A stretch of 64,000 nucleotides of DNA from Pseudomonas rhizosphaerae (GTDB lineage: Bacteria; Pseudomonadota; Gammaproteobacteria; Pseudomonadales; Pseudomonadaceae). The notes under the pieces are model-generated. The model was not told where the DNA came from and searched no databases. It worked only from the letters and a program-made list of their open reading frames with translations. Positions 25,479 to 49,810 of this stretch are shown here, piece after piece; the stretch's first letter is position 1, and the number at the start of each line of letters is the position of its first letter. Made by a program: the position numbers and the translations under genes. The DNA lies in contig NZ_CP009533.1 in the NCBI RefSeq assembly GCF_000761155.1, positions 1,426,001-1,490,000 of the forward strand. The letters run 5' to 3'.

Positions 25479-25540
25479 CCTCATCGAAGATGGGGTCGTC
25501 CCCGTTTGCAGGAAAAGTGGCGCCGGGTCGTCCCGGCGCC
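25479..25540 (-). promoter_or_regulatory. Guanidine-II (mini-ykkC) riboswitch
   Basis: On the minus strand the leader holds two hairpins with ACGA loops. The first (25519-25540) is GGCGCCGGG-ACGA-CCCGGCGCC and the second (25492-25503) is GGGG-ACGA-CCCC. Two hairpins with ACGR loops in front of a SugE gene are the defining features of this class. CCCCATC just after the second loop (25489-25495) can instead pair with GATGAGG (25479-25485), which contains the Shine-Dalgarno. So the second ligand-binding hairpin and the anti-SD hairpin exclude each other. That gives a translational on-switch when guanidine binds. Confidence 0.9.
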
Positions 25541-29410: not shown

Positions 29411-32163
29411 TCAGGCCATCGCCCGGGCCTGCTCCTCGAGCCTGAGGATCGCTTCGTCCAGTTCGTCCAGTGCCGCCAGTGCGGCCGGGTCGTTCTGCTT
29501 GAGCAGGGTTTCACTGCGCAGGCACGCGGCGCGCAGCTGCGGTACGCCGCAATAGCGGGTGGCGCCGTGCAAGCGATGCACTCGTTCGATCATGGCGTTC
29601 TGGTCAGCGGTGATCCGTGCCAGCTGGATAGCTTCGCGGTCGGCCTGCAGCGAGGCCAGCAGCATCGCCAGCATGTCGGCAGCCAGGTCGGCCTTGCCAG
29701 CGGCCAGGCGTAGCCCCTCTGCGGCATCCAGTACCTGCAGGCTGTTGCTTTCCAGCGGCAGCTCCGCCGTCTTGTCCAGCCCTTGCGGGGCCAGGCCAGG
29801 CCTGTCCATTTCAGCACCACTTGCGCCAGCTGGCGTTCGCTGATGGGCTTGGTCAGGTAGTCGTCCATGCCGCTTTGCAGCAAGGCGCGCTTTTCATTGG
29901 CCATGGCGTGGGCGGTCAGCGCCACGATGGGCAGCGCAGCGCCAGTCTGGGCGCTTTCCCAGACGCGGATGCGCTCGGTGGTTTCACGGCCGTCCATCTC
30001 CGGCATTTGCACATCCATCAGCACCAGGTCCAGGCCACCTTCCTGCACCGCCTTGATCGCCGCCGCACCGTTGTCCACCGCGCGCACCTCGGCGCCCAGG
30101 TCTTCGAGCAGGGTCTGCACCAGCAGCAGGTTGGCCGGATTGTCGTCCACGCACAGCACCCGCGGCGCACGTTCGGCACTGCCCTCGGGGCTTTCGTAGC
30201 GCAACTGCTTGGGGTTGATCAGGTCGGCCAGGGCGCGGCGCAGCCGGCGTGTGCAGCTGGGCTTGGCCTGCAACTGCCGGTCGGCATTGGGTACGGCGGC
30301 ATGGAACAGTGCTTGCTCGGTGGTTGGGCACAGCACCAGCACCTGGCAGCCGCTCTGCTCGATCTCGCGAATCTGCACGGCCAGGCGTTCGGGCGATATC
30401 TCGTGGGCAGTAATGCCAAGCACTGCCAGGTCCAGCGGCTGGCCCGCCTGACGCGCGGCGTGTGTCGCCAGCACCAGCTTGTCCAGGGATTTGAAGTCGG
30501 TCACCTCCAGGCCGCAGTCTTCGAGCTGATGCTGCAGGGCTTGTCGGGCCAGTTCATGGCCGTCGACGATTGCGATGCGACGGCCCAGCAGGGGCGCCGA
30601 CGGCAGGTCCTCGGCATCGTCGCGCGCCTTGGGCAGGTTGAGGCTGATCCAGAATTCCGAACCCTCGCCCGGCGTGCTGTCGACGCCGATCTCGCCACCC
30701 ATCTGCTCGACCAGTCGCTTGGAGATCACCAGCCCCAGCCCCGTGCCACCGGGCTGGCGCGACAGCGAATTGTCGGCCTGGCTGAACGCCTGGAACAGTG
30801 CCCGCACGTCCTGGCTCGACAGGCCGATGCCGGTGTCCTGCACACTGATGCGCAGTTGCACGCTGTCTTCGCTTTCGTCTTCCATCATGGCGCGGGCAAC
30901 GATGGTGCCCTCGCGGGTGAACTTGATGGCGTTGCTGACCAGGTTGGTCAGGATCTGCTTGAGCCGCAGCGGGTCGCCGATCAGTGACAAGGGCGTATCG
31001 CGGTACACCAGGCTGACCAGCTCGAGCTGCTTGGCATGGGCGGCCGGCGCAAGAATGGTCAGGGTGTCCTGCAGCAGGTCACGCAGGTTGAACGGAATGT
31101 TGTCGAGCACCAGCTTGCCGGCTTCGATCTTAGAAAAGTCGAGAATCTCATTGATGATGCCCAGCAGGCTGTCCGCGGATTTTTCGATGGTGCCCAGGTA
31201 ATCCAGTTGGCGCGGGGTGAGCTCGCTTTTCTGCAGCAGATGGGTGAAACCGAGTATGCCGTTGAGCGGCGTCCTGATCTCGTGGCTCATGTTGGCGAGA
31301 AATTCGGACTTGATCCGGCTCGCTTCCAACGCTTCCTTGCGCGCCAGGTCCAGCTCGATGTTCTGGATCTCGATGGTCTCCAGGTTCTGCCGGACGTCTT
31401 CGGTGGCCTGGTCGATGCTGTGCTGCAGTTCTTCCTGGGCGTCTTGCAGGGTTTCGGCCATGCGATTGATGCCGGCCGCCAGGGCGTCCATTTCGTGGCT
31501 GCCCATGGCCGGGACGCGGCTTTCCAGGTTGCCGTCCTTGATCTGCGTGACCGTGTCCTTGATCTGCCGAATCGGCGCACTGATGCTGCGGCTCATGTGC
31601 GCCGCCAGCAGCGCGGTAATGCTCAGCCCGGTGAGAATCAGCAGCAGGCTGGCGAACAGGCTGCGGTAGCCGCGCAGCAACGTACCATCGTGGGACAGTT
31701 CCAGCTCGACCCAGCCCAGCAGGTGGTCGGCCTCCTCGGGCACCTCGTCGCTGGCCAGGTCGCGGTGGCGGCCGAACACCGGCATCAGGTAGCGGGTTGC
31801 GTCGAAGCCGCTGCGTTGCAGCGAATGGGTGCTGTTGCCGATGGGCACTGCGTTGAGCATCATCGGCCCGGCATGGGCGAGCAGGGTCCGGTCCGCGCCC
31901 AGGAAGGTCACCGAGCGCACGTCGGTCAGCTCCAGGGATTGCGCGGCGATGCGCTCCAGGCGCTCGCGGTCCTTGGCCACCAGTGCAGGTGCCGCCAACG
32001 GCGCCAGCTGTTCGGAGATCATGTCGCCACGCTGCAATAACTGTCGCTGCAGGTCGGACTGCTGCATCCAGGTGAAATAGCCACCCAGGATCAGCGCCAT
32101 GCAGGTGGCCGGGGTGAGCGCGAGTAACAACACGCGGCTCTTGATACCGAGTTTCTTCAACAC
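29411..32163 (-). pseudogene. gacS: gacS, hybrid sensor kinase, frameshifted before the Hpt domain
   Basis: The reading starts at GTG 32163 (VLKKLGIKSRVLLLAL). TM1 is about residues 11-31, the periplasmic part 32-168, TM2 169-190, HAMP to about 245, HisKA with H294 (NMSHEIRTPLNG), then the ATPase (NLVSNAIKF, DTGIGL, GGTGLGL). A degenerate receiver follows and then a receiver with D717 (LVLMDVQMPEMDG). After residue 789 (VVLKWTGL) the frame is lost and about 68 unrelated residues follow to a stop at 29590. The Hpt domain continues in another frame (LAPQGLDKTAELP to 29411), with the phosphorylated His in ERVHRLHGATRYCG. Adding one base near 29797 gives 917 residues and H863, matching family numbering as I recall it. 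GacS activates GacA and the Rsm small RNAs. Confidence 0.9.
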
Positions 32164-49305: not shown

Positions 49306-49440
49306 GGTCTGGCTCTCTGAGGTTTTGTTCACACAGGGTAGAGGCGCCGGGCGCGGGCAAGGTTCAACCGCGTTCCCGGTCGCCGAGTGCGGGGGATCAA
49401 TTGACGCTCCAGGCGCAACCCTCTAACCTGCGCGGCTGTT

Positions 49441-49636
49441 CCAGGTGCTCGGCGATCAGGCGATTGGCGCGAGTGAAACAGGGAAGCCGGTGCGCAGCGT
49501 TTACGCGCCATGCCGGCGCTGCCCCCGCAACGGTAGACGAGTCAAGGCTGCACAGGATGCCACTGAAGCGATTCGGGAAGGCGTGTGGCCCGGGTGTACA
49601 AACCCCGCTCGTGAGCCCGGAGACCGGCCTGGTGCA
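49441..49636 (+). promoter_or_regulatory. Cobalamin riboswitch
   Basis: The conserved parts occur in order: AACAGGGAAGCCGGTG (core start), GCCGGCGCTGCCCCCGCAAC with GGTA, and the B12 box GAGCCCGGAGACCGGCCTG at 49613-49631. This is the standard aptamer for adenosylcobalamin-type effectors. It is followed by about 175 non-coding bases and then cobO, so B12 sufficiency should shut off the whole cob operon. The expression platform is not obvious; no clear T-tract terminator is seen before cobO. Confidence 0.93.
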
Positions 49637-49810
49637 CTTTTTATGGCTCGTTGCAGAACCTGCGCTCATCCCACCGATGGCGTGGGCCTGTGTCGTGCCC
49701 TGATCCATGTTCTGTCGCGCGGGGAGAGCGGCATTGACGTTCACTGCCTGGCCCACCGGCCGCGGTGTCGCGTCGATGCTGCCTGCGCGCAGGTGTAGCG
49801 GAGAGCCACC

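What the first reader, a model, noticed from the sequence alone, without database searches (positions are those of the whole stretch)
29411..32163. gacS is split by a single missing base between receiver and Hpt domains
Read directly, the frame that begins at GTG 32163 stays in register through H294 and D717 to residue 789, then loses the Hpt domain, which continues in the next frame to 29411. Restoring one base near 29797 gives 917 residues with the Hpt His at 863, the numbering I recall for GacS of fluorescent pseudomonads. Everything else in the gene is intact. Loss of the Hpt domain should break the phosphorelay to GacA and silence the Rsm RNAs, changing biofilm, exoproduct and motility traits. 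Spontaneous gac mutants are well known in pseudomonads, but a sequencing error in the GGCCAGGCCAGG stretch is equally possible.
Basis: partly seen in the sequence, partly recalled or inferred. Interest (0 to 1): 0.75.

Follow-up and report, generated by a model that had tools for sequence, protein, structure and literature searches.

The report
Pseudomonas gacS gene broken near end
A well-known bacterial master-regulator gene is split in this genome so that its last relay domain is cut off; this looks like a recent spontaneous mutation or a leftover assembly error, and both are ordinary.

Summary
The minus-strand frame from GTG 32163 carries sensor, HAMP, H1 kinase (H294) and receiver (D717), then stops after 857 codons (29590) without the Hpt domain, which lies in another frame ending at 29411. 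The two closest genomes found (88% DNA identity) have one open frame, one base longer. The split is a private change, not a conserved architecture. gacA, rsmY, rsmZ and a LadS-like kinase are present. Both gacS pieces show strong purifying selection, so the break is recent or not real. Over 999,370 aligned bases this assembly shows two clear in-gene frame breaks, gacS being one; it is not riddled with indels, but one residual error cannot be excluded without reads. Broken gacS recurs: 4 of 384 assessable genomes, this one included, have a frame break, and one (G316) also detaches the Hpt. Separately, P. vranovensis DSM 16006 has a stop codon in the receiver. I slightly favour a spontaneous gac mutation (0.55) over assembly error (0.38). 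Leftover novelty: the detached Hpt has its own ATG and might act in trans.

The parts
29590..32163 (-). gacS, N-terminal piece as deposited: 857 codons from GTG, ending in about 60-70 out-of-frame codons; sensor, HAMP, H1 kinase (H294), receiver (D717)
   Evidence: best NCBIfam match BarA NF008318, 762.4 bits, below its cut-off of 890
29411..29809 (-). detached Hpt frame, 132 codons from an ATG at 29809, Hpt His at residue 81 of this piece
   Evidence: 160-codon stop-to-stop frame
29780..29810 (-). linker in which the frame changes; one base shorter than in both closest relatives; exact place ambiguous
   Evidence: runs of 4 and 3 identical bases lie within 15 bases, none longer

Best explanation
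This is an ordinary gacS gene with a recent loss-of-frame change between its receiver and Hpt domains, probably a spontaneous mutation in the sequenced culture or its recent ancestor. As deposited, the cell would make an 857-residue hybrid kinase that could still pass phosphate from H294 to D717 but lacks the H2 (Hpt) domain that hands it to GacA, so output through GacA to rsmY and rsmZ should be low. Shown: the frames, the domains, the private nature of the break among genomes examined, the open partner genes. Inferred: that the break exists in the cells, and its phenotype.
For: Both closest relatives have one open frame, one base longer, as does a 99% identical protein labelled P. coleopterorum. 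dN/dS of both pieces stays at 0.02-0.04, as expected if the break is young. gacA, RsmZ, RsmY and a LadS-like kinase are present. The assembly is otherwise clean: 2 clear in-gene breaks in 999,370 aligned bases; neither lies in a run of five or more identical bases. gac mutations arise readily: 8 of 10 mutualistic isolates of an evolved P. protegens had gacS/gacA mutations (PMC8219802, passages), and spontaneous gac mutants are reported for P. fluorescens F113 and P. brassicacearum NFM421 (PMC7695008, passages). Broken gacS recurs: 4 of 384 assessable genomes including this one.
Against: No reads were seen. Both clear breaks of this genome are one base short, which also fits missed bases in long-read assemblies. 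A second strain of the species was not available. The rate of broken gacS (about 1%) is not clearly above what the measured background of about 2 in-gene breaks per Mb (gacS itself included) predicts for a 2.75 kb gene (about 0.5%).
Confidence: 0.55

Rival explanations
1. Residual assembly or sequencing error: the cells carry an intact one-frame gacS and only the deposited letters are one base short.
For: Single one-base shortage; no relaxed selection in either piece; the second clear break of this genome is also one base short.
Against: Only two clear in-gene breaks in 999,370 aligned bases, against one in G064, and none in a run of five or more identical bases.
Confidence: 0.38
2. Working split relay: truncated GacS plus a stand-alone Hpt made from the ATG at 29809, acting in trans with LadS and perhaps GacS.
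For: The Hpt frame has an in-frame ATG and an intact Hpt His. An isolated GacS H2 domain sufficed for LadS to induce rsmY and rsmZ about 600- and 800-fold when LadS was overproduced in P. aeruginosa (PMC4866733 section 10). A LadS-like kinase is encoded. Purifying selection on the Hpt piece is unrelaxed.
Against: By eye no ribosome-binding site stands before the ATG. The same ATG starts a different frame in G064, so it fits here only by accident. Unrelaxed selection is equally explained by youth or error. No near-identical stand-alone Hpt was among the 120 hits listed of 192.
Confidence: 0.05
3. Programmed -1 ribosomal frameshift that joins the two frames.
For: The frames overlap from 29896 to 29590 in the -1 relation.
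Against: No X XXY YYZ heptamer in register in the overlap; relatives are fused in one frame, so there is no conserved programmed site.
Confidence: 0.01

Closest known systems
GacS (BarA family) unorthodox histidine kinase of pseudomonads
   Same: sCache_4, HAMP, HisKA, HATPase_c, receiver in the usual order, H294 and D717 in place; Hpt sequence present and 95-97% identical to relatives
   Different: Hpt is in another reading frame; the longest frame scores below the BarA model cut-off (762.4 of 890 bits)
Spontaneous gac mutants of pseudomonads
   Same: a single small change in an otherwise intact gacS with gacA and the Rsm RNAs in place
   Different: no phenotype or read data here, so membership is not shown
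Other genomes with GacS cut before or at the Hpt (G316; P. vranovensis DSM 16006, locus L061)
   Same: the GacS frame stops or is left before the Hpt is read
   Different: L061 has a stop codon inside the receiver; G316 leaves the frame near the start of the Hpt, in a draft assembly of about 80 contigs

Membership tests
GacS/BarA unorthodox kinase | sensor-HAMP-H1-HATPase-receiver in one frame | tested here: met
GacS/BarA unorthodox kinase | Hpt (H2) domain in the same polypeptide | tested here: not met
   Hpt in a different frame as deposited
GacS/BarA unorthodox kinase | score over the NCBIfam BarA cut-off | tested here: not met
   762.4 of 890 bits for the 857-codon frame; 70.9 bits for the Hpt piece
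Spontaneous gac mutant | break present in the DNA of the cells | not testable with these tools
   needs reads or re-sequencing
Spontaneous gac mutant | intact gene in the closest relatives | tested here: met
   G064 and G270 in one frame; P0001
Spontaneous gac mutant | loss of rsmY/rsmZ expression | not testable with these tools
   needs RNA measurement
Programmed frameshift gene | slippery heptamer X XXY YYZ in the overlap of the frames | tested here: not met
   none in register

The most novel reading that the evidence does not exclude
The break turned GacS into a two-protein relay: a truncated GacS plus a stand-alone Hpt made from the ATG at 29809, which still lets LadS (and perhaps GacS) reach GacA. 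It would be a natural split of an unorthodox kinase in one mutational step.
Probability: 0.05. Interest if true: 0.55.

Novelty: new member of a known kind. Interest (0 to 1): 0.22.

Why it matters
If real, the sequenced culture of this species is probably Gac-defective, and traits reported from it (exoproducts, biofilm, motility) may not represent the species. If an error, the record needs a correction. The survey (4 of 384 assessable genomes with a frame-broken gacS) is a reminder for anyone predicting traits from species-level Pseudomonas genomes.

Tried and rejected
Conserved split architecture: rejected. Of 139 loci (L009-L147), 135 carried both parts and 131 (5 of them duplicates of another locus) had receiver and Hpt in one open frame; this test covers the last 100 codons of the kinase match through the Hpt, less its last 12 codons. 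The four that did not are L009 and L118 (both this genome), L061 and L141. The four loci without an Hpt match (L111, L115, L116, L117) are not Pseudomonas.

ORF-based frame-split screen: too noisy, because long antisense ORFs in high-GC DNA gave many false splits (16 and 18 in this genome against ORFs of G064 and G270; 11 and 16 between those two). Replaced by a test of the codon phase of mismatches on both sides of each indel. Of 7 flagged, I kept three after inspection by eye and dropped four (G000 positions 1309737, 1271024, 1417088 and 1080757) as lying at or near gene boundaries or a gene start.

Programmed frameshift: no slippery heptamer.

Imported Hpt end: synonymous divergence from the two relatives is higher in the Hpt (dS 0.65-0.73) than in H1-D1 (0.38-0.44), while between the relatives it is alike (0.25 and 0.23). 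Identity falls a little over the Hpt end and stays lower into the downstream genes, without a sharp edge, so I do not claim recombination.

L011 (G031) first looked interrupted, which stops 12 codons short of the end of the match, finds it open, so its stop is at the very end. Twelve other genomes flagged with one stop inside have open frames of 918 codons or more; I took their stops as terminal without reading the sequence.

Full report
What is there. On the minus strand the frame from GTG 32163 is open for 857 codons, with its stop at 29590-29592. The Hpt domain is not in that frame. It lies in a second frame that ends at 29411, open for 132 codons from an ATG at 29809, and scores 45.1 bits against Pfam Hpt (cut-off 24.6). 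The two frames are in a -1 relation and are both open from 29896 to 29590, so the break must lie there. Alignment with the two closest genomes puts it near 29795, in a linker of variable sequence.

Relatives. The window lies in a single contig of 4.685 Mb. In a draw of 398 genomes of the genus the closest were G270 and G064, both 88% identical over the 790-base end of the gene and both 791 bases long there, with the Hpt inside frames of 983 and 962 codons. A natural protein labelled P. coleopterorum (P0001, 926 aa, cluster of 78 members) is 99% identical over 92% of the query and includes its Hpt. Over 139 gacS-like loci 135 have both parts, and 131 of these (5 duplicates) have receiver and Hpt in one open frame. 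Among those 139 loci only this genome's own two copies of the locus have the Hpt moved out of frame.

Age. Measured piece by piece against G064 and G270, dN/dS is 0.022 and 0.023 for H1-D1 and 0.043 and 0.029 for the Hpt; between the two relatives it is 0.035 and 0.046. Neither piece shows relaxed selection. This fits a very recent break, or no break at all in the cells. Synonymous divergence is higher at the Hpt end (dS 0.65-0.73 against 0.38-0.44), without a sharp edge.

Mutation or error. I aligned 1.244 Mb of this genome with 1.2 Mb of G064 (999,370 bases aligned, 87.6% identity) and asked, for each indel not a multiple of three, in which genome the codon phase of mismatches changes. Of 434 such indel clusters 56 were testable and 7 were flagged, 5 in this genome and 2 in G064. 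On inspection two are clear in-gene breaks in this genome: gacS, and one at G000 position 2036115 that splits a frame of 1259 codons in G064 into 552 and 712. One is clear in G064. The remaining four lie at or near gene boundaries or a gene start. Against 240 kb of G270, 1 of 17 testable clusters was flagged in this genome, again gacS; between G064 and G270, 1 of 4 testable was flagged, in G064. The assembly is thus not full of indels. Both clear breaks are one base short, and neither lies within a run of five or more identical bases. This leans slightly to a real mutation but cannot exclude one residual error.

How common is a broken gacS. With P0001 as query I examined 389 genomes, this one included (149, 80 each). 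Two had no match at E 1e-100 (G337, 78% complete; G406, 96% complete). Three more are not assessable: G088 ends at a contig edge, G244 begins at one, G307 is spread over two contigs. Of the other 384, four have a frame break: this genome; G149 (near residue 219); G398 (a middle stretch in another frame); and G316, whose match leaves the frame at residue 833 of P0001 and whose Hpt lies in a separate 149-codon frame. Outside this set, P. vranovensis DSM 16006 (L061) has a stop codon inside the receiver where this genome has Lys. The search with the Hpt piece also listed a few stand-alone GacS-like Hpt proteins on long contigs, such as P0142 (129 aa, contig of 5.39 Mb) and P0176 (151 aa, 6.61 Mb), among many from short contigs; these were not followed up. 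At about 2 in-gene breaks per Mb (gacS itself included), chance alone would break a gene of 2.75 kb in about 0.5% of genomes, so about 1% is not a clear excess.

Mechanism. In an unorthodox kinase the phosphate passes from H1 to D1 to H2 (Hpt) and then to the response regulator (PMC4866733 and PMC7695008, passages). As deposited, GacS ends without H2. GacA is open beside uvrC and exceeds its NCBIfam cut-off (313.8 against 280 bits); RsmZ and RsmY exceed their Rfam gathering scores. A GacA-box-like palindrome (consensus recalled) with one mismatch lies upstream of RsmY and one with three mismatches upstream of RsmZ (chance not computed). The expected result is low Rsm RNA and a Gac-negative phenotype. 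One escape is known: in P. aeruginosa an isolated GacS H2 domain was enough for LadS to induce rsmY and rsmZ about 600- and 800-fold when LadS was overproduced (PMC4866733, section 10 read). This genome encodes a 7TMR-DISM kinase with one receiver that I read as LadS from its domains. So if the detached Hpt were made, part of the relay could survive. Against this, I see no ribosome-binding site before its ATG, and in G064 the matching ATG starts another frame.

Novelty. Spontaneous gac mutants are well known. A search for gacS with Pseudomonas rhizosphaerae, my guess at the species, listed one paper, not read. I file this as a new member of a known kind, with low interest.

Noticed in passing
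L061:5272-5760 (P. vranovensis DSM 16006): gacS of this type strain has a stop codon inside the receiver domain, at the place of a Lys in this genome, with the Hpt open in the same frame behind it.
   Followed up: partly
G316:C25:134713-137470: A second species-level genome in which the gacS Hpt lies in a different frame from the kinase and receiver.
   Followed up: partly
G149:C1 near 1938034 (locus L283) and G398:C25:80754-83510 (loci L141, L285): Two further gacS genes with frame changes: G149 near residue 219, G398 with a middle stretch in another frame.
   Followed up: partly
G000:C1:2036115 (outside the window): Second clear in-gene frame break of this genome: a frame of 1259 codons in G064 is split into 552 and 712 codons here.
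   Followed up: partly
window 13722 (G000:C1:1439722): A 656-codon frame intact in this genome is broken in its relative G064.
   Followed up: partly
P0142, P0176, P0163, P0179: Stand-alone GacS-like Hpt proteins of 115-171 aa predicted on long contigs, perhaps further detached Hpt domains.
   Followed up: no
window 25491-25539 and 49426-49646: Guanidine-II riboswitch (minus strand) and cobalamin riboswitch (plus strand), both over Rfam gathering scores.
   Followed up: no
NZ_CP131792.1:663843-667708: A P. aeruginosa record of 846,886 bases in the plasmid collection carries gacS at 74% identity; it may be a chromosome piece.
   Followed up: no
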